This document shows positions 3,366 through 36,608 of a stretch of 36,608 nucleotides of DNA, piece by piece. The DNA comes from Pyramidobacter piscolens W5455. Its GTDB lineage: Bacteria > Synergistota > Synergistia > Synergistales > Dethiosulfovibrionaceae. The translations under genes were made by a program, and so were the position numbers. The number at the start of each line of letters is the position of its first letter. Position 1 is the stretch's first letter. Location of the stretch: NCBI RefSeq assembly GCF_000177335.1, contig NZ_ADFP01000069.1, forward strand, positions 1-36,608, read 5' to 3'. The notes under the pieces are model-generated. The model was not told the DNA's origin and made no database searches. It saw only the letters and a list, made by a program, of their open reading frames with translations.

Positions 3366-4193
3366 TTAGAGCAGGAAAGCCCACCAGATCATCCACGCGC
3401 ACAGCGTGTTGACGAGAACGCTGTCGAAGCGGTCGAGGAATCCGCCATGACCGGGGAAAATATGCCCGCTGTCCTTGACGTCGTTCTCGCGCTTGATCAG
3501 AGATTCCACCAGATCGCCCAGCTGACCGGCGCTGCCGCAGGCTGCGCCGACCAGGATAAACGCCATCGGGCTGAACTTGAAAAACAGTGCACAGAGCGCG
3601 CCGCAAAGCGTGCTGGCGACAAAGCCGCCAATAAACCCTTCGAGACTCTTGTGAGGGCTGATATGAGGACAGACGCGCACCGTTCCCCAGCGCGAGCCGA
3701 CGAGATAGGCCATGACGTCGCACGACCAGGTGCAGAGAAAGATGGAGAGGACCGTCGCCCAACCAACGGGATCGGGCAGAGCCCGAAAACGAATCATACA
3801 GTACCACGGGATGACCGCGTACACCAAGCCCGTGATCACAGGGCCGACGCTGGCGATGGAATGACTGCCGGCAGTCAGCTGGCGACGCGCCAGTTCCATA
3901 AAATAGACGGCGAAACAGCACAAGCCGAAAATCGCCATCAAACCGGTCTGCGACACTTGTTCGGAAGAAAAAAGCACCACTACCGCGGCCACCAGGCCGA
4001 CGAAGCGGTCCGCTTTCGGCAGGCTGGGCGACATGCGGTAAAACTCCCAGAGAGACCCCAAAGCCACAAACGCGGCATAGACATGCCACCACCAGCCGCC
4101 GAGATAAAGCAATCCCAGCATCACCGCGACCAAGGCCGTGCCGGTAGCGGCGCGAACGGCCAGCGTATGCTCAAAACTCTTCGACTCGTCCAT
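3366..4193 (-). CDS. cdsA: Phosphatidate cytidylyltransferase CdsA
   Basis: 275 aa from the chosen start. It makes CDP-diacylglycerol from phosphatidic acid and CTP at the inner membrane, the branch point of phospholipid synthesis. At least seven hydrophobic segments are visible. The C-terminal CdsA signature is clear: HKSLEGFIGG, then GQLGDLVESLIKRENDVKD and PGHGGFLDRFDS. The ATG at 4193 is preferred because GGAAGGG lies 9 bases upstream. An in-frame ATG at 4214 would add seven residues but has a poorer ribosome site. With either start the gene overlaps the 3' end of uppS, suggesting translational coupling. Confidence 0.96.
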   Translation of the reverse strand: MDESKSFEHTLAVRAATGTALVAVMLGLLYLGGWWWHVYAAFVALGSLWEFYRMSPSLPKADRFVGLVAAVVVLFSSEQVSQTGLMAIFGLCCFAVYFMELARRQLTAGSHSIASVGPVITGLVYAVIPWYCMIRFRALPDPVGWATVLSIFLCTWSCDVMAYLVGSRWGTVRVCPHISPHKSLEGFIGGFVASTLCGALCALFFKFSPMAFILVGAACGSAGQLGDLVESLIKRENDVKDSGHIFPGHGGFLDRFDSVLVNTLCAWMIWWAFLL

Positions 4194-4872
4194 AGCGGCG
4201 TTCCCTTCCGGCATAGGACTGCAATGCCTTTTTCAGTTCCGCGGCGCCGAAATCGGGCCAGAGCGTGTCCGTAAAATAATATTCGCTGTACGAGCCCTGC
4301 CACAGCCAGAAATTGCTGATGCGGAGCTCCCCGCTGGTGCGGATGATCAGATCCGGATCGGGAACGTCGGGAAGATAAAGATGTTTTCTCAGGTCTTCTT
4401 CGCTGGAGATCGTTTCGCCGTTGGACTGAGCGTCGGCAATGGCGTCCAGGATCTCCTGCCGTCCGCCGTAATTGAAACAGACGACCAGCGTCATGCGGCC
4501 GCATCGAGCCGTCTCCGTCTCGCTCCAGTCGATGATCCGCAAAACTTCATCGGGAACGCCACGGCGCGCCCCGCAAAAACGGACCCTGACGCCGTTTTTC
4601 ACGAGTTCGGGAACCTTTCGGCGCGCGTAATACCGAAGCAGCGCCATCAAGCCCATCACTTCGAGCTGAGGTCGATTCCAATTTTCCGTTGAAAAAGCGT
4701 AAACCGACAGGAAGCCAATGCCCATCTCGCCGGCCGCCCGCACCGTCCGCTCCAAAGCGGCGATCCCGGCGCGGTGCCCCAACAGGCGGGGCAGGCCACG
4801 TTTGTTGGCCCAGCGGCCGTTGCCGTCCATGATCAGGGCGACGTGTTTCGGTAAGTTCGCGCAACTTTCCAT
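4171..4872 (-). CDS. uppS: Isoprenyl transferase (undecaprenyl diphosphate synthase) UppS
   Basis: 233 aa cis-prenyltransferase, slightly shorter than the usual 240-250. It extends farnesyl diphosphate with IPP to make the C55 carrier used for peptidoglycan and O-antigen. The catalytic motif ALIMDGNGRWA (12-22; D16 is the Mg/diphosphate aspartate) and FSTENWNRP are present. The C-terminal block DLIIRTSGELRISNFWLWQ supplies the diphosphate-binding arginines. It lies 3 bases after udg and overlaps cdsA. The uppS-cdsA-dxr-rseP order is a widely conserved cluster; frr, often its first gene, is not here. Confidence 0.97.
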   Translation of the reverse strand: MESCANLPKHVALIMDGNGRWANKRGLPRLLGHRAGIAALERTVRAAGEMGIGFLSVYAFSTENWNRPQLEVMGLMALLRYYARRKVPELVKNGVRVRFCGARRGVPDEVLRIIDWSETETARCGRMTLVVCFNYGGRQEILDAIADAQSNGETISSEEDLRKHLYLPDVPDPDLIIRTSGELRISNFWLWQGSYSEYYFTDTLWPDFGAAELKKALQSYAGRERRYGRVEEF

Positions 4873-4875
4873 GCT

Positions 4876-5493
4876 TTATCCTCTCAGGCTTTCATAGCGC
4901 TGACGTATCTCTTGAATATCGCGCCACGTCAAATCCTTGGGGCCGCCGCGCTCACGGCTCTGGTTCCGCAGAAGGTAGCTGGGATGGAACATCGGCATCA
5001 GCGCCGCGCCGCGCCACGTGAACCAGCGCCCGCGCATTTTGGTGATCCCCTCCGTGCCGTGCAGAAACCACTTCAGAGGCGTGTTCCCCAGACAGACGAT
5101 GATTTGCGGCTGAAGCAGGGCGATCTGAGCTTCCAGCCAGCGCTGGCAGCTCAAGACCTCTTCGATTTCGGGAACGCGGTTGTTGGGCGGACGGCACTTG
5201 ACGATGTTGGTGATGTACACGTCGTCGCGGCTGAATTTGGCCGCCTCGAGGATGCGGGTCAGCAACTGCCCGGCCGGCCCGACGAAGGGACGTCCCGAAT
5301 TGTCTTCCACCTCGCCGGGACCTTCGCCGACGAACATGATGCGCGAGGTCAGGCTGCCTTCGCCGACCACGACGTTCTTTCTGGAGCGGCAGAGCCCGCA
5401 CTGTTCGCATCTGTTCGCCGCGTCCCGCAACAATTGGTAAAGCGCCGTGCGCTCTTGCGGGGAGCGCTGCGCTTGAGAGATCATTTCAGTCAT
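4876..5493 (-). CDS. Type-4 uracil-DNA glycosylase (4Fe-4S)
   Basis: 205 aa. It removes uracil from DNA to start base excision repair. It belongs to family 4 (UDGa), not the Ung family: motif 1 is GEGPGEVED (56-64), motif 2 is HPSYLLR (170-176), and four cluster cysteines fit C29, C32, C100 and C116. The ATG at 5493 has AGAGGT upstream and overlaps the preceding gene by 8 bases; a second ATG three codons in is possible. Placing a DNA repair gene inside an envelope operon looks like simple co-transcription. Confidence 0.93.
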   Translation of the reverse strand: MTEMISQAQRSPQERTALYQLLRDAANRCEQCGLCRSRKNVVVGEGSLTSRIMFVGEGPGEVEDNSGRPFVGPAGQLLTRILEAAKFSRDDVYITNIVKCRPPNNRVPEIEEVLSCQRWLEAQIALLQPQIIVCLGNTPLKWFLHGTEGITKMRGRWFTWRGAALMPMFHPSYLLRNQSRERGGPKDLTWRDIQEIRQRYESLRG

Positions 5494-6331
5494 TGAAGGT
5501 TACCTCTGCTATGGTTACGTCGACTCTCGCAATTTCCATTCCCGTCAGTTGTTCGACGGCAACCCGGACGCGCAGCGCCGCCTGAGCGGTCAGCTCCTTG
5601 AAGTTGAGAGCGCCGGTTTTCACCGCCAGGGAAAGAGAAATTACCAGACGGTCGTTTTCTTCTTTCACTTTCGGCTCCTTGACGGAGACCACCTGTACGG
5701 TGCCGCGGGCCACGTGCTCGGCGATCTGTTCGACGACGGCGGATTCGATCTTGAGCGCCCCGTAGTAGCTGAACGGGGGACGCACAATGGTCTTTTCCGC
5801 CTCGTCCCGACTCGAGAAAAGATTTTTCAGACGGCCCACCAGCCGTCCCGTATAGTTTTTCTGGATCTGCGTCTGAGCGACGGGAATGACGTGACGCTTG
5901 TTCTGTTTCCGCTCGTAAAGCGCCTTTTCGATCTCGTCGCCGGAGGCGACTTGATCGATGCGCACGTATTCCGAAGGCAGCGGCAGTCCCAGCACCTCGC
6001 AGATCTCGTCGCTCATGCCCTGCGATGTGGCGAGAATCATAATGCGACTTCCCGGGTGGCGCGCCAGGCAGCGCCGCACCTCATCGCGGTGTTCCGGAAA
6101 ATGGAACATGGCGCGCCGAATGGCCCGCACCATGTTGGGTTCCGTTTTGGCGCTTTTTCCGGCCAGAATCCGCCCGCGGGAAATCAGCAGTCCGTCGTCG
6201 ATGATGATGTCGACGCTGCGTTTCGACGCGACCATCTGCGAGCGCATGCTTTTTCCCGTTCCCGCCGGCCCGTAGAAGGCCAAAACTTCATATTTCCCCG
6301 GAAGGAGGTCAGAAACCGTCTTCGTCTTCAC
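5486..6331 (-). CDS. P-loop NTPase fused to an Asp23/Gls24-like domain
   Basis: 281 aa. The start is a GTG at 6331 preceded by AGGAGGGGG about 7 bases away; a longer open frame to 6814 only shadows murA. Residues 21-28 (GPAGTGKS) form a Walker A motif followed by a hydrophobic DIIIDD strand resembling Walker B (41-46). A basic linker (about 140-175) leads to residues 182-281. That region, with GALKIESAVVEQIAEHVA and a long beta pattern ending IARVDVTIAEV, resembles the Asp23/Gls24 (DUF322) fold of envelope-stress proteins. Function is unknown. The family assignment of the C-terminal half is from pattern only. The gene sits 32 bases after murA and overlaps udg. Confidence 0.8.
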   Translation of the reverse strand: MKTKTVSDLLPGKYEVLAFYGPAGTGKSMRSQMVASKRSVDIIIDDGLLISRGRILAGKSAKTEPNMVRAIRRAMFHFPEHRDEVRRCLARHPGSRIMILATSQGMSDEICEVLGLPLPSEYVRIDQVASGDEIEKALYERKQNKRHVIPVAQTQIQKNYTGRLVGRLKNLFSSRDEAEKTIVRPPFSYYGALKIESAVVEQIAEHVARGTVQVVSVKEPKVKEENDRLVISLSLAVKTGALNFKELTAQAALRVRVAVEQLTGMEIARVDVTIAEVTFND

Positions 6332-6363
6332 GATCGCTCCCCCCTCCTGGAAGGATAAACGCT

Positions 6364-7656
6364 CTAAAGCGAGCTTTCGTCTTCTTCCGCGACAGAAACT
6401 TTGGCGCCCAGTCCCTGAAGGGCGCGATCGAAATTTTCGTATCCTCTCAGGATATGGTGAAGACCGTAAACGCGGGTCTCGCCCTCGGCCGCCAGCCCGG
6501 CCAGCACCAAGGCGGCGCCGGCGCGAAGATCGGTTCCCTGCACGCTGGCGCCGTACAGAGCGGGCACGCCGTTGATGACCGCCGTGTTGCCCTGGATCTC
6601 GATCGCCGCGCCCATTTTGCGAAGTTCCGCCACGTGCTGGAAACGGGATTCGAAGATGCTTTCCTTGATCACGCTCGTGCCTTTGGCAAGGCACAACGCG
6701 GCCATCAGCTGCGGCTGCACGTCGGTGGGAAAACCGGGATAGGGCATGGTCTTGACGGACAGCTTCTTGAGCCTGCCGCGCGAGGGATAAACGGTGACGC
6801 TGTTTTCCTGACATTCATAAGACACGTCGGCTTCTTCCAGTTTGGCCAGAAGCGAATCGAAATGCTGCGGCTGCACGTCGGTCACGGTCACTTCGCCGTT
6901 CGTGATCACGCCGGCCAGGAGGTACGTGCACGAAGCGATGCGGTCGGGGATGATCTGGACGCGGCCGGAAAACAACCCGGCTCGTCCGTTGACCTGGATC
7001 ACGCCGGCATTGTCCTTTTTATAACAGACCTCGGCGCCCATCGCCTGAAGCGCCTGAACCAGATTCGTGATCTCCGGCTCGCGGGCGGCGTTCTCGATCG
7101 TCGTCTCGCCGTCCGCCAGCGCTGCCGCCATGACAAGGTTCTCCGTCGCGCCCACCGAAGGGAAATCCAGATATATTCTACAGCCGCGCAGTTTCCTGGC
7201 GCTGGCATAGACGGCCCCGTGGCTGAGTTCGATCGAAGCGCCCATTTTCGCCAGCCCCTTGAGATGCAGATCGATCGGCCGGGCGCCGATCGCACAGCCT
7301 CCCGGCAAAGGCATAACCGCTCTCCCCGTCTGGGCAAGCAGCGGTCCCAAAAGGATCGAAGAAGCGCGCATCTTTTGTACCAGCGACGCGGGCATTTCGC
7401 AGAGCAGATCGCCCCGACGGGTCACCGTGGCCGCGCCATCCTCGAACTGTACGTCCATTCCCAGCGCGCGCAAAAGGGCGACCAGCGTCTCAGTATCGCG
7501 CAGAAGCGGCACATTGGTGCATGTCAGTTTTTCACCGTCGCCGAGCAGAAGAGCCGCCGCCATCACCGGCAGCGCGGCGTTCTTGGATCCCTGAGTACGA
7601 ACTTTCCCCTTGAGAGCCGCTCCGCCGGAAATCTTCAAAAACTGAGCATTACTCAT
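6364..7656 (-). CDS. murA: UDP-N-acetylglucosamine 1-carboxyvinyltransferase MurA
   Basis: 430 aa. It transfers enolpyruvate from PEP to UDP-GlcNAc, the first committed step of peptidoglycan synthesis, and is the fosfomycin target. The catalytic cysteine is present as C121 in PGGCAIGARPIDLHL, so the protein should be fosfomycin-sensitive in principle; K25 and N26 of the substrate site are in GSKNAALP. The ATG at 7656 is chosen over an upstream in-frame codon because AGGAGTGGGAG lies just before it. It is first in the eight-gene envelope operon and has a TATAAT-type promoter about 55 bases upstream. Confidence 0.97.
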   Translation of the reverse strand: MSNAQFLKISGGAALKGKVRTQGSKNAALPVMAAALLLGDGEKLTCTNVPLLRDTETLVALLRALGMDVQFEDGAATVTRRGDLLCEMPASLVQKMRASSILLGPLLAQTGRAVMPLPGGCAIGARPIDLHLKGLAKMGASIELSHGAVYASARKLRGCRIYLDFPSVGATENLVMAAALADGETTIENAAREPEITNLVQALQAMGAEVCYKKDNAGVIQVNGRAGLFSGRVQIIPDRIASCTYLLAGVITNGEVTVTDVQPQHFDSLLAKLEEADVSYECQENSVTVYPSRGRLKKLSVKTMPYPGFPTDVQPQLMAALCLAKGTSVIKESIFESRFQHVAELRKMGAAIEIQGNTAVINGVPALYGASVQGTDLRAGAALVLAGLAAEGETRVYGLHHILRGYENFDRALQGLGAKVSVAEEDESSL

Positions 7657-7709
7657 AACTCCCACTCCTAAGGCACGTTTTATGATAACCAAGATACAAA
7701 TACTTTTAC

Positions 7710-7738
7710 ATTATACAACAACTACAAGAAAGCCGTCA
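7710..7738 (-). promoter_or_regulatory. Probable sigma-70 promoter of the murA operon
   Basis: The minus strand has a perfect TATAAT at 7715-7710. With a 17-base spacer the -35 would be TGACGG (7738-7733), a weak match lying inside the wecA terminator stem. The predicted start is about 50 bases upstream of the murA ATG. Confidence 0.55.
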
Positions 7739-7763
7739 TCCTCAATCAAGGACGACGGCTTTC
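7728..7763 (-). terminator. Stem-loop terminator after the wecA-like gene
   Basis: GAAAGCCGTC (7728-7737) pairs with GACGGCTTTC (7754-7763), and TCCT/AGGA extends the stem after one mismatch. On the minus strand it follows the wecA-like stop by a few bases and is trailed by the T-rich TTGTAGTTGTTG. It separates this operon from the murA promoter. Confidence 0.7.
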
Positions 7764-7766
7764 CCC

Positions 7767-8632
7767 CTATAGGCGCAGAAGCAGATAGGCGCAGGACAAA
7801 CTGACGATCTGCAGGAAGCTCAGGGCCATCAGCACCCCGAACGGCGACAGACCTTTATCCAGCAGACGATGATGAATATGACTCCGGTCAGGATAAAAAG
7901 GCGATTTTCCCGCGGCAACGCGACGCACGATCGCCGCCAGAGTGTCGATCACGGGCACGCCGCCGACGAAAAGCAGCACCGCGCAGAGCTTGTAAATGCC
8001 GAGATCCATCGGCAGCAGCCAAAGCATCGCCACGGCCGCGGTAAAGTAGCCCAGCAGGTAGACGCCGCCGTCCCCCAAGAAAGTCCTCGCCCTGGGAAAA
8101 TTCCAGAAAAAGACCCCCGCGATCATGGCGATAACCGGCACGACCTCGGTCGAAGCGCTCATCCAGCCGATAAAACTCAGACTGAGGAACGCCATGGAAA
8201 GAGCCAAGCCGTTGATGCCGTCGATAAAGTTGTAAGCGTTCGTCACGCCGGCGACCCAGAACAACAGGACGCCCATATGCAGCGCATCCTGTTGTCCCAC
8301 CATGAGCAACGACACGGCGGCGGCAAAGAAATGCACGACCAGCCGTCCGAACGGGGACAAAGAAAGCATGTCGTCCAGGTAGCCGGCAAAAAAAACGATC
8401 GTCGCGCCGGTCACGATGATCCTCAGTTCGAACGAGACCCGGGCAAAAAGCAACGCCCACATCAGCAAGCCGCTCCACAAAACAAGCCCGGCGCCGCGCG
8501 GCACCGGGGCACGATGGATCTTGCGCTGATCCGGATAATCCATCATGCCGTAACGCTCCGCCAGCATGATGGCGATGGGGGTCATCCCGCCGCCCCACAA
8601 CAGAAAGATCAGAAAAAGCCAGAAAGGCTTCA

Positions 8633-8633
<1 letters not shown>
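7767..8633 (-). CDS. WecA/TagO-like undecaprenyl-phosphate sugar-1-phosphate transferase
   Basis: 288 aa polytopic membrane protein of the MraY/WecA/TagO family, with about ten hydrophobic segments. These enzymes load a UDP-linked amino sugar phosphate onto undecaprenyl phosphate to start a surface glycan. Family motifs are PDQRKIHRAPVPRGAG (34-49), AGYLDD (83-88; Mg-binding aspartates), NAYNFIDGINGLA (132-144), TFLGDGG (184-190) and SHIHHRLLDKG (251-261). The HIHH motif points to the WecA/TagO branch rather than MraY. The ATG at 8633 overlaps the upstream TGA as TGATG, so translation is probably coupled to the rpiB-upp fusion. The exact sugar cannot be read from sequence. Confidence 0.9.
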
Positions 8634-9745
<1,112 letters not shown>

Positions 9746-9812
9746 TCAAAAGAAGTTGACTCGCCGACCTTCAAGCATTTATACAGAACAACGCTATTTT
9801 GCCACACTTGCA

Positions 9813-9855
9813 TAAAAAAAGCGAGGTCATCCACGAAAAGTGAATGCCTCGCTTT
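9813..9855 (-). terminator. Intrinsic terminator of the decarboxylase operon
   Basis: On the minus strand AAAGCGAGG (9855-9847) pairs with CCTCGCTTT (9826-9818), followed by a run of Ts (complement of the A-run 9814-9820). It lies 16 bases past the biotin-carrier stop codon and closes the three-gene operon. Confidence 0.85.
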
Positions 9856-9870
9856 CGGAACCGGCAGTTT

Positions 9871-10278
9871 TCAGCCAATAACGACGAGAACGTCGCCGCT
9901 GTTCACGGCCGAGCCTTCGCTCACACGAATCTCAAGCACCTTGCCGTCGCGGCCGGCGGGGATTTCGTTTTCCATCTTCATGGCCTCGAGGATCAGAAGG
10001 TTGTCATTGGCCGACACGGTGTCGCCCACCTTGGCAAGAACGCGCAGGACTTTGCCGGGCATAGGCGCCGTCACTTCCGTGCTGCCCGCCGGAGCGGCAG
10101 CGGCCGGCGCCGCCACCGGAGCGGGGGCAGCCTGGGGCGCAGGAGCCGGAACAGGAGCGGCAACGGGCGCCGCCGCAACGGGCGCTGCCTGAGGCGCCGC
10201 GACAGCAGCGGCGCCAGCAAGAGGCTCAACGTTTACGTCATAGGACTTGCCATTCACGGTAATCTTATACATCGACAT
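9871..10278 (-). CDS. Biotin carboxyl carrier subunit of a Na+-pump decarboxylase
   Basis: 135 aa. The N terminus (1-20) is a short strand-rich segment, followed by an Ala/Pro-rich flexible linker (about 21-66) and a biotinyl domain (67-135). The biotin lysine is K101 in EAMKMENEI, 34 residues from the C terminus as usual. It shuttles CO2 from the carboxyltransferase to the membrane decarboxylase. The ATG at 10278 has GAGGAGG 9 bases upstream; an ATG two codons later is also possible. It is last of three genes (carboxyltransferase, small membrane subunit, carrier), matching the gamma subunit of methylmalonyl-CoA decarboxylase. Confidence 0.93.
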
Positions 10279-13126: not shown

Positions 13127-14074
13127 TCAATCCTGAAAATGAATCTGTTTCAATATGTCCACCGCCACCTGAAGCGCCCGCTTGCCATCCGAAATTCCGA
13201 CCAGAGGCTGGCGCCCCTCGCGCACGCAGGTCATAAAATGTTGAAGTTCCTGTTTGAGCGGCTCCCCTTTCGGCAGCAGAGGGTGTTCGATCACCTCGAT
13301 CAAACTCCCGGCGGCCGACGTCTGCGGCGCGTGATGAACCATTACGTCCTGAGTTTCAAAGTTCACGGAATAGTACTTGTCGCGGCACATGACATCCATC
13401 TGGCGCAGACGGCGTTCCGCCACCCGGCTTACCTGAATGTCCGCGATCGCCCCCGACCTGAAAGCGATCTGAGCGACGGCAAGGTCCTCGTGATTCGTGC
13501 GAATCTTGCGTCCCATCGCGTTGATCGCCGCAATTTCGGACTTCACGAGCGAAAGCACGATATCGATGTCGTGAATCATCAGATCGAGCACGACCCCCAC
13601 ATCGCCGATCCGTGACGAAAAGGGGCCCTGGCGACGCGACTGAATGCAGAGCGGATCGTTTTTGATCTCGCCGTCAAGATAACGAATCGCGCTGTTGAAC
13701 CGCTCCACGTGCCCCACCTGGAGAACGATGCCGTTGTCCCGGGCGATATCCAAAAGCGCCGAAGCCTGCTCCACGGTGCTCGTTACCGGTTTCTCGATCA
13801 ACAGGTGGATTCCCTGCCGGGCCAGACGGCCGGCCACGTCAAAATGAGCAACGGTCGGGACGACAACGCTGATCGCTTCGGGTCTCTGTTCGCTGACGAA
13901 ACGTTCCACGTCGGTATAGGCCGGCACGCCATACTGCGCGCCAATCTCCTCTGCGGCTGAAAGAGAGCTGTCAACGACGCCGACCAGCTTTGCTCCCATC
14001 AGTTCTTTGTATATGCGCGCGTGGATACGGCCAAGATGCCCTACCCCGATGACGCCAACTCTGATACTCCCCAC
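13127..14074 (-). CDS. Gfo/Idh/MocA oxidoreductase, GnnA-like (UDP-GlcNAc 3-dehydrogenase?)
   Basis: 315 aa NAD(P)-dependent dehydrogenase. The Rossmann motif VGVIGVGHLG is at the N terminus, the family EKP motif is in HLLIEKPVTSTVEQA, and a conserved GHVERFNSAI follows. That last motif is typical of GnnA, which oxidises UDP-GlcNAc for 3-amino lipid A, and of WlbA-like enzymes. The GnnA assignment is a family inference; no lpx genes or GnnB aminotransferase are nearby. A GTG at 14074 is chosen because GGGGTGA lies 5 bases upstream; an in-frame GTG at 14083 adds three residues but lacks a ribosome site. It is last in the clpP-lon-valS operon. Confidence 0.85.
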   Translation of the reverse strand: MGSIRVGVIGVGHLGRIHARIYKELMGAKLVGVVDSSLSAAEEIGAQYGVPAYTDVERFVSEQRPEAISVVVPTVAHFDVAGRLARQGIHLLIEKPVTSTVEQASALLDIARDNGIVLQVGHVERFNSAIRYLDGEIKNDPLCIQSRRQGPFSSRIGDVGVVLDLMIHDIDIVLSLVKSEIAAINAMGRKIRTNHEDLAVAQIAFRSGAIADIQVSRVAERRLRQMDVMCRDKYYSVNFETQDVMVHHAPQTSAAGSLIEVIEHPLLPKGEPLKQELQHFMTCVREGRQPLVGISDGKRALQVAVDILKQIHFQD

Positions 14075-35799: not shown

Positions 35800-36333
35800 T
35801 CAGTCGATTTTCAGCACGCGATACTCGCCGCAGTCTTCGACCGCTTTCTTCAAAACGGCGTCGGGGACCTCGCGTTCCAGAATCACTTCCGTAAAATTTT
35901 CCCGGTACGCCACGCCCGTAACGCCACCGACGTCAGTCAGCGCCCTGCGGATTTTTTCGCGGCAGACGTCGCAGGCAATGCCCTCGATGAACAGCGCCTT
36001 GTAATCGATACGCTCGATTTTGAAAATGACCGGACGTGTCCCATCGCTACAGCAAGCGATCATGATCCTCTCGTCGTTCGTCCAGTTTCTCATGATGGAA
36101 CCGCCTTGAAGGGCCGTGTAAACATAACGGCTGATCGCATCCCACGCTTCAGAGCACTGAGTCCCTTTCCCCATGGTCCAGAAATCGTCCCGACCGCCAT
36201 AGCGTTCGAAAACGAACTCCTGCCCTTCCTCGTAAAACCGGCAGGGACCGGAACTTGGGTCCGCCAGATACTCCCGCTGCAAATCAGGATACAGTTCTTT
36301 TTTCAGAACGGTGATTTTGCATTTGTGCTGCAC
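35800..36333 (-). CDS. TIGR04076-like domain fused to a heavy-metal-associated (HMA) domain
   Basis: 177 aa. Residues 1-110 resemble the small uncharacterised TIGR04076 family: KCKITVLKKELYPDLQREY at the start, a central FWTMGKGTQCSEAWDAI and DGTRPVIFKIER. Residues 112-177 look like an HMA metal-chaperone fold: GIACDVCREKIRRALTDVGGV with CxxC at C121/C124, then a beta-alpha-beta pattern ending CGEYRVLKID. GTG start at 36333 with AGGGGGG 6 bases upstream. The role is unknown; a metal-handling or metal-sensing function for the C-terminal part is an inference from CxxC. Confidence 0.85.
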   Translation of the reverse strand: MQHKCKITVLKKELYPDLQREYLADPSSGPCRFYEEGQEFVFERYGGRDDFWTMGKGTQCSEAWDAISRYVYTALQGGSIMRNWTNDERIMIACCSDGTRPVIFKIERIDYKALFIEGIACDVCREKIRRALTDVGGVTGVAYRENFTEVILEREVPDAVLKKAVEDCGEYRVLKID

Positions 36334-36380: not shown

Positions 36381-36406
36381 AAAAGCCCCCGCGAAGGGGG
36401 CTTTTT
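36380..36406. terminator. Intrinsic terminator after the tRNA-like gene
   Basis: AAAAAGCCCCC (36380-36390) pairs with GGGGG-CTTTTT (36396-36406) around a 5-base loop. It has T-runs on both strands, so it can work in both directions. Confidence 0.92.
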
Positions 36407-36427
36407 GTAGTTTTCACAAAAAAATCA

Positions 36428-36520
36428 TGGCGGAGGGAAGAGGATTTGAACCCCCGAGGGGCGTGAACCCCTGGCTGATTTCGAGTCAGCTGCCTTGCCC
36501 GCAAAATGCCCACACCCTAC
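36428..36520 (-). tRNA. tRNA-Ser(CGA)-like gene with atypical 5' half
   Basis: Clear tRNA-Ser features on the minus strand: anticodon arm GCTGA-CTCGAAA-TCAGC (anticodon CGA), a long class II variable arm AGGGG/CCCCT, T-loop TTCAAAT, discriminator G and encoded CCA (36430-36428). From the best 5' end it is 93 bases, normal for tRNA-Ser. However, the acceptor 5' strand GTAGGGT (36520-36514) pairs with TCCCTCC with two mismatches, the T-stem has two G-T pairs, and the D-arm cannot be folded normally. A good promoter and terminator flank it. It could be functional but divergent, a pseudogene, or a tRNA 3'-half left by an integration event. The exact 5' end is uncertain. Confidence 0.65.
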
Positions 36521-36530
36521 GACGCCAGCG

Positions 36531-36559
36531 ATTATAACACCTCATGCCCCGCTGGACAA
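36531..36559 (-). promoter_or_regulatory. Promoter of the tRNA-Ser-like gene
   Basis: On the minus strand TTGTCC (36559-36554), a 17-base spacer and a perfect TATAAT (36536-36531). The predicted start is within about 5 bases of the proposed tRNA 5' end. Confidence 0.7.
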
Positions 36560-36608
36560 GAGCGGCTTCCGCCAGTAGCAGCTGATTCATCGACTCGAAA
36601 TTTTCAGA

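What the first reader, a model, noticed from the sequence alone, without database searches (positions are those of the whole stretch)
36428..36559. tRNA-Ser(CGA)-like gene with an unfoldable 5' half but good promoter and terminator
The anticodon arm, long variable arm, T-loop, G73 and CCA are intact, but the acceptor has two mismatches and no normal D-stem is possible. Either it is an unusual serine-like tRNA or a tRNA 3'-half left as an attachment site. The last bases of the window (36577-36601, plus strand) repeat GCAGCTGA and CTCGAAAT of the anticodon arm, split by 8 bases, which hints at past rearrangement.
Basis: partly seen in the sequence, partly recalled or inferred. Interest (0 to 1): 0.55.

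Follow-up and report, generated by a model that had tools for sequence, protein, structure and literature searches.

The report
Mobile-element scar in serine tRNA gene
The odd half-tRNA at the end of this contig is the far junction of a small phage-like mobile element that inserted into the cell's serine tRNA gene; an intact copy of that tRNA gene lies at the element's other end, so the finding is real but mostly ordinary.

Summary
A tRNA-Ser(CGA)-like gene lies at 36428-36516 (minus strand) with an intact 3' part and a misfit 5' part. It is best read as the distal junction (attR) of an integrative element.

The last 69 nt of the tRNA plus two flanking bases (36426-36496) recur, 71/71 identical, in the genome's complete tRNA-Ser(CGA) on contig C51. 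In a same-genus genome (G005) the same two copies flank a 10-kb element as direct repeats, with a tyrosine integrase starting 47 bases past the point where our window (a whole contig) ends. Two other congeners have the uninterrupted site.

The promoter-like site is element DNA; the terminator is the host tRNA's own, displaced; the split repeat at the window end lies in the element's att arm. The element resembles a phage satellite or decayed prophage.

Side result: of 13 related Synergistales integrase loci with att-like repeats, four displace a 3' tRNA fragment, as here; four are the mirror image, the repeat covering the tRNA 5' half plus upstream DNA. Both modes are in print; their mixture in one integrase clade is the mildly new part. 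Whether the chimeric half-tRNA is transcribed is untested.

The parts
36426..36496 (-). att core: the 3' 69 nt of tRNA-Ser(CGA), from the D-stem 3' strand to CCA, plus TG
   Evidence: 71 of 71 identical to C51:4435-4505 and to both copies in G005; 69 nt of it in the empty site of G001, 71 in G004
36428..36516 (-). chimeric tRNA-Ser(CGA)-like sequence; anticodon at 36483-36481
   Evidence: ARAGORN; below Rfam gathering scores
36497..36516 (-). element-derived misfit 5' part of the chimeric tRNA
   Evidence: differs from the complete gene; same in G005's integrase-side copy
36531..36559 (-). promoter-like site in element DNA, reading into the fragment
   Evidence: TTGTCC-17-TATAAT, TG before -10, 10 of 12; identical in G005. 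Activity untested
36386..36399 (-). terminator-like hairpin, the host tRNA's own terminator, displaced with the 3' fragment
   Evidence: same hairpin stands behind the intact tRNA at the empty site of G001
36573..36590 (+). putative arm-type integrase site, one copy of an 18-bp direct repeat
   Evidence: partner on the other side of the core at C51:4348-4365; both also in G005. Role inferred
36497..36608 (.). element end (P arm); in G005 the integrase gene starts 47 bases past the base that matches 36608
   Evidence: 111 of 112 identical to G005 element DNA; G005 integrase L032:4187-5143; window end is the contig end

Best explanation
The feature is attR, the distal junction of an integrative element that a tyrosine integrase inserted into the tRNA-Ser(CGA) gene. 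Shown by sequence comparison: the element carries a copy of the tRNA 3' part, so that the tRNA is complete at the other junction (contig C51), while the host's original 3' part with its terminator is displaced to the window end behind element DNA. Inferred: strand exchange takes place in the anticodon arm; the element can excise; the element's promoter-like site reads through the chimeric half-tRNA into the displaced host terminator; the resulting RNA, if made, is a by-product without function.
For: Second copy, 71 of 71 bases, inside a complete tRNA-Ser(CGA), the only other place found in the genome at E<=0.001. In G005 the two copies are direct repeats 10,004 bp apart with a Phage_integrase-family gene (3.3e-28) between them, beside the chimeric copy. 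In G001 one uninterrupted locus joins the flank of C51 and the flank of C69, overlapping by 70 bases that are the core; G004 likewise has an intact tRNA with both flanks. G000's C51 side matches the G005 element next to the intact tRNA at 88%. Relatives of the integrase sit beside tRNA genes in the same geometry in 17 of 26 loci analysed.
Against: The window's own genome has no contig with a close copy of the integrase: its best matches are distant (E 7.4e-7, 27% identity), so the integrase of this copy is inferred to lie in an assembly gap. The element of G000 is in three contigs (C69 end, C58, C51 start) whose continuity is not shown. No free circular form was found (two exact patterns, 0 hits in viral contigs).
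Confidence: 0.96

Rival explanations
1. The chimeric sequence is a working, unusual serine tRNA, or another functional small RNA, expressed from the element's promoter.
For: ARAGORN calls it; a promoter-like and a terminator-like site frame it; the 112 element bases next to it are 111/112 identical in G005, where C51 and G005 element DNA are 88% alike; in four relatives the integrase-side copy is an intact tRNA.
Against: Below Rfam gathering scores, fold no better than shuffles, two acceptor mismatches, and a complete tRNA-Ser(CGA) elsewhere. High identity over 112 bases can come from att function alone.
Confidence: 0.05
2. Assembly artefact: the fragment is a misjoined contig end.
For: The window ends at a contig end and the genome is in 140 contigs.
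Against: The same junction is present in G005, a two-contig genome, with an integrase-bearing insert between the copies, and two congeners show the empty site.
Confidence: 0.02
3. A tRNA pseudogene left by an ordinary duplication, with no site-specific integration.
For: A tRNA fragment and a complete gene in one genome would look alike at first sight.
Against: The fragment's downstream flank, terminator included, is the native downstream flank of the tRNA in G001 and G004, while the complete gene is followed by element DNA: the hallmark of insertion, not duplication.
Confidence: 0.01

Closest known systems
tRNA-gene genomic islands with a displaced 3' tDNA fragment (Islander class; PMC4383910, passages read)
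   Same: Complete tRNA at one end, displaced 3' fragment in the same orientation at the other, tyrosine integrase inside, crossover compatible with the anticodon arm. Islander counts 3760 such islands of 3919.
   Different: Only details: the integrase is beside the displaced fragment, and the element DNA there has a promoter-like site at tRNA-like spacing. I did not check how common that is in Islander.
5'-half tRNA integrations: Islander's 159 islands with 5' fragments and archaeal pTN3-like integrases (PMC8371274 and PMC5495485, passages read)
   Same: Four relatives of this integrase behave so: the integrase-side tRNA is intact and the repeat covers the 5' half plus upstream DNA.
   Different: The window's own element is of the 3' type. 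[quoted passage not shown] here expression is unknown.
ICEKp1 and its tRNA-Asn site (PMC13023037, abstract and section headings read)
   Same: Integration displaces the tRNA's terminator; a promoter lies at the element's far end.
   Different: In ICEKp1 both serve integrase transcription. Here the integrase points away from the promoter-like site, and the element has a strong hairpin after the rebuilt tRNA.
tRNA-dependent lysogeny phages (PMC10865867, abstract and passages read)
   Same: Tyrosine integrase, attB in a tRNA gene.
   Different: There the host tRNA is not rebuilt and the phage brings its own tRNA; here the tRNA is rebuilt at the far junction.
Integrase of Moorella phage MTATph1 (closest named phage record)
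   Same: 39% identity over 98% of the G005 integrase.
   Different: A 177-kb phage record; its att site was not examined.

Membership tests
tRNA-gene integrative element, 3'-fragment type | Displaced 3' tRNA fragment identical to, and oriented as, an intact copy | tested here: met
   71/71 identical; direct repeats in G005; in G000 the two lie on different contigs, so relative orientation there is not shown
tRNA-gene integrative element, 3'-fragment type | Integrase gene inside the element | tested here: inconclusive
   Met in G005. In G000 no close copy is in the held contigs; the window stops 47 bases short of where it would start
tRNA-gene integrative element, 3'-fragment type | Uninterrupted site in relatives without the element | tested here: met
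   G001 and G004
tRNA-gene integrative element, 3'-fragment type | Excision to a circle and re-integration | not testable with these tools
   No circular form found in viral contigs with two exact patterns, which is weak evidence
functional tRNA-Ser | Cloverleaf with paired acceptor and D-stem | tested here: not met
   Two acceptor non-pairs; below gathering scores
functional tRNA-Ser | Transcription, processing and charging | not testable with these tools
   Promoter-like and terminator-like sites only
phage satellite (PICI-like) | Integrase, replication gene and terminase small subunit without a capsid gene set | tested here: inconclusive
   G005: integrase, primase-helicase and TerS (phrog_4102, 3.1e-27) in 10 kb, no capsid gene recognised among the proteins scanned; but G000's contig C58 has a tape-measure protein, which fits a decayed prophage as well
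phage satellite (PICI-like) | Induction and packaging by a helper phage | not testable with these tools
   Needs culture work; definition from the abstract of PMC6092414

The most novel reading that the evidence does not exclude
In this Synergistales integrase clade attP is a captured whole tRNA transcription unit (promoter, tRNA body, terminator). Either half can be the one that rebuilds the host gene, and the clade has switched between 3'- and 5'-rebuilding. In the window's element the 5' half has decayed but its promoter is kept and the P' arm brings a terminator, so the element could make a chimeric tRNA-like RNA in both the integrated and the circular state.
Probability: 0.3. Interest if true: 0.5.

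Novelty: new member of a known kind. Interest (0 to 1): 0.3.

Why it matters
It shows that a tRNA called by ARAGORN at a contig end can be an att junction rather than a gene, and it maps a phage-like element in a little-studied phylum. [quoted passage not shown]

Tried and rejected
A protein gene at the window end: the minus-strand frame that is open from the contig end into the fragment has no Pfam match, and in G005 its counterpart overlaps the 5' end of the integrase on the other strand; I do not treat it as a gene.

A circular form driving the element's own operon: the promoter-like site would, in a circle, point at the XRE-primase operon, but a strong hairpin with a T tract stands in between, so I dropped this as the main reading. 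The simple terminator scan does not list that hairpin (its loop limit is 3-8), so its role rests on the fold alone. The same holds for the hairpin behind the 5' fragment in G051 (z -2.88; not listed).

A promoter in the repeated upstream DNA of 5'-type elements: the scan found none at the integrase side of G051. That these repeats include the tRNA promoter is therefore inference from position only.

Arm-type sites shared by the clade: the 18-bp repeat of the Ser element is not a clade-wide motif (motif scan); repeats between the two arms of other loci are different and mostly weaker.

A free form in viral contigs: none.

Literature: no paper in the library holds Pyramidobacter, integrase and tRNA together. 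The listings (20 of 123 shown; 2 of 2; 15 of 110; 15 of 129; 0; 8 of 4,952; 10 of 594) show no title describing this element or a clade mixing both modes; most hits were not seen, and the library is partial. Williams 2002 on tRNA sublocations is not held and is known here only as cited in PMC8371274. PMC2718499 was opened (passages) and gave nothing used.

Rows dropped: of 29 integrase loci I analysed 26; left out were two on one 3.5-kb contig of G143 and one at a contig end in G017. Short chance-like repeats (13-14 bp) in G004 and G053 were not counted as att repeats. The integrase of G001 is split over two frames and was left out of the tree; G004, with the same Leu target but no far end on its contig, was labelled 3' by analogy.

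Full report
Observation. ARAGORN calls a tRNA-Ser(cga) at 36428-36516 on the minus strand. No Rfam gathering score is reached in the window; at relaxed threshold the site's best match is tRNA-Sec at 33.8 bits, below its cut-off of 47. A promoter-like site (36559-36531) and a terminator-like hairpin (36399-36386) lie on the same strand.

Second copy. The window is the whole contig C69 of a 140-contig genome, so its end is a contig end. A search of the genome found one other place: C51:4435-4505, 71 of 71 bases identical to 36426-36496. There ARAGORN and Rfam find a complete tRNA-Ser(CGA), 54.4 bits, with a promoter-like site in front. In the complete tRNA the shared block starts at base 22 and ends two bases past CCA.

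The element in a congener. A same-genus genome in two contigs, G005, carries both copies: the chimeric one at L032:3958-4028 and the complete one at 13962-14032, direct repeats 10,004 bp apart. Between them, beside the chimeric copy, lies a 318-aa tyrosine recombinase (L032:4187-5143; Phage_integrase 3.3e-28). The last base of the window corresponds to L032:4140, so in G005 the integrase starts 47 bases further on. The 112 element bases in the window match G005 at 111 positions.

Empty sites. In G001 one uninterrupted locus matches C51's flank (L033:1497-3750) and C69's flank (3681-10001); the 70-base overlap is the core. G004 has an intact tRNA with both flanks. This fixes the direction: element DNA lies at 36497 and beyond; 36425 and below is chromosome. 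The terminator behind the fragment is the one that stands behind the intact tRNA in G001, so it is the host's own, displaced. At the rebuilt end the element brings a long hairpin with a T tract that folds far better than shuffles in G000 and G005 (z -7.2 and -6.2, 0 of 200 shuffles each); the simple terminator scan, limited to loops of 3-8, does not list it.

Host. The genome is most likely a Pyramidobacter species (Synergistota): G004, in the window's genus, has a contig of 92,898 bases with an integrase relative at 72% identity, the same length and identity as a contig of Pyramidobacter sp. C12-8. This is inference; the genomes held are unnamed.

Element content. G005: integrase, an HTH regulator, Fic, RelB antitoxin, a terminase small subunit (phrog_4102, 3.1e-27), a Toprim/AAA_25 primase-helicase and a small HTH_3-like protein below its cut-off. 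G000's pieces: C51:1-4434 with a different primase (NrS-1 polymerase-type HBD domain; phrog_1829 DNA primase 6.6e-57), and C58, a 3.5-kb contig whose two ends match the G005 element, with part of Fic, RelB and an 861-aa tape-measure protein (phrog_1716, 8.7e-35). G005 keeps only the C-terminal end of that protein (ORFs compared by eye). A phage satellite or a decayed prophage both fit. No close integrase copy is in the held contigs of G000 (best E 7.4e-7), and the order C69-C58-C51 is inferred.

The split repeat. The window's last 112 bases share four 8-mers with the tRNA core in inverted orientation; 8 of 2000 shuffles reach that. Part of it, 36573-36590, is one copy of an 18-bp direct repeat whose partner lies on the other side of the core (C51:4348-4365; also in G005). 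Arm-type integrase sites are the natural reading, an inference.

The integrase clade. In 149 genomes of the order, 21 have a relative at E<=1e-30. I analysed 26 of the 29 loci. In 17 of 26 an ARAGORN tRNA lies within 450 bp with its 5' end facing the integrase; in one the tRNAs are in the other orientation; eight have none. Thirteen of 26 show long att-like repeats; of the other 13, nine run into a contig end and four gave none. Of the 13: four displace a 3' fragment, nearly whole in two, to the integrase side (Ser here; Trp in G021; Leu in G001; Gly in G014); four have an intact integrase-side tRNA and a repeat covering the 5' 46-64 nt of the tRNA plus 28-85 bp upstream, leaving a 5' fragment at the far end (Gly G051, Val G018, Sec G081, Arg G071); one has the whole tRNA at both ends (Gln G010); one lies at the 5' end of what I read as metG (G059; motif recalled, no search made); one is a reversed two-tRNA site (G020); one is not a recognised tRNA (G043); one could not be classed because of masked bases. 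The eight classified repeats have tRNA bases 22-46 in common, which hold the anticodon arm, and the single mismatch of the Leu repeat lies 5' of the anticodon loop; both fit exchange in the loop. On a quick tree of 25 integrases (SH-aLRT support only) the two modes need at least two changes over eight labelled rows, one label by analogy. For three of the four 5'-type hosts I checked that the integrase-side tRNA is the only full-length exact copy in the genome. A relative of G051 has the corresponding tRNA-Gly region uninterrupted, 92% over 315 bases. Against the idea that the repeats carry the tRNA promoter: a scan found no promoter-like site at G051's integrase side.

Known or not. Islander lists 3760 islands with 3' and 159 with 5' fragments among 3919 (PMC4383910, passages). 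The 5' mode is described for pTN3-like archaeal integrases and called seldom met in bacteria (PMC8371274, passages). Displacement of a tRNA terminator and a promoter at the element's far end are in print for ICEKp1 (PMC13023037, abstract and headings). So the window's feature is a new member of a known kind; the mixture of modes within one clade is a modest addition that my listings did not show described.

Not shown: excision, transcription of the chimeric unit, activity of the integrase, and continuity of the G000 element across its assembly gaps.

Noticed in passing
window 35800-36333, minus strand: 177-aa gene of family TIGR04076 (115.7 bits, cut-off 33) with a weak C-terminal heavy-metal (HMA) domain below its Pfam cut-off. 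The stretch 35842-36323 is missing at the same place in G005 and G004 but present in G001.
   Followed up: partly
L032:14125-15971: G005 has a 1.85-kb insertion between tRNA-Ser(CGA) and the upstream tRNA-Arg genes, absent from C51 and G001, flanked by a short direct repeat; looks like a transposition.
   Followed up: no
L120:762-3347 (G000:C58): 861-aa tail tape-measure protein in the G000 element piece; only its C-terminal end remains in G005. An isolated tail gene in such a small element is odd.
   Followed up: partly
L003:593-3362 and L032:10210-12874: The two elements at the same tRNA-Ser site have different replication genes (NrS-1-type primase in G000, Toprim/AAA_25 in G005) but similar ends: a mosaic.
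   Followed up: partly
L106:870-1415 and L108:700-1409: In G051 and G018 the integrase-side junction is in the first gene of an array of five and six tRNAs, so the whole array lies behind DNA shared with the element.
   Followed up: partly
L111 about 1163-1353: A distant integrase relative in G059 has a 191-bp perfect repeat over what looks like the 5' end of methionyl-tRNA synthetase (read from the sequence; no search made).
   Followed up: no
L118:3093-3167 and L104:1287-1363: Elements at tRNA-His (G053) and tRNA-Trp (G021) share a similar integrase-side 5' half, (A)GTTTAGTAGCTCAA..., that does not fit the acceptor stem of either target, as if an element-borne tRNA 5' half moved between targets.
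   Followed up: partly
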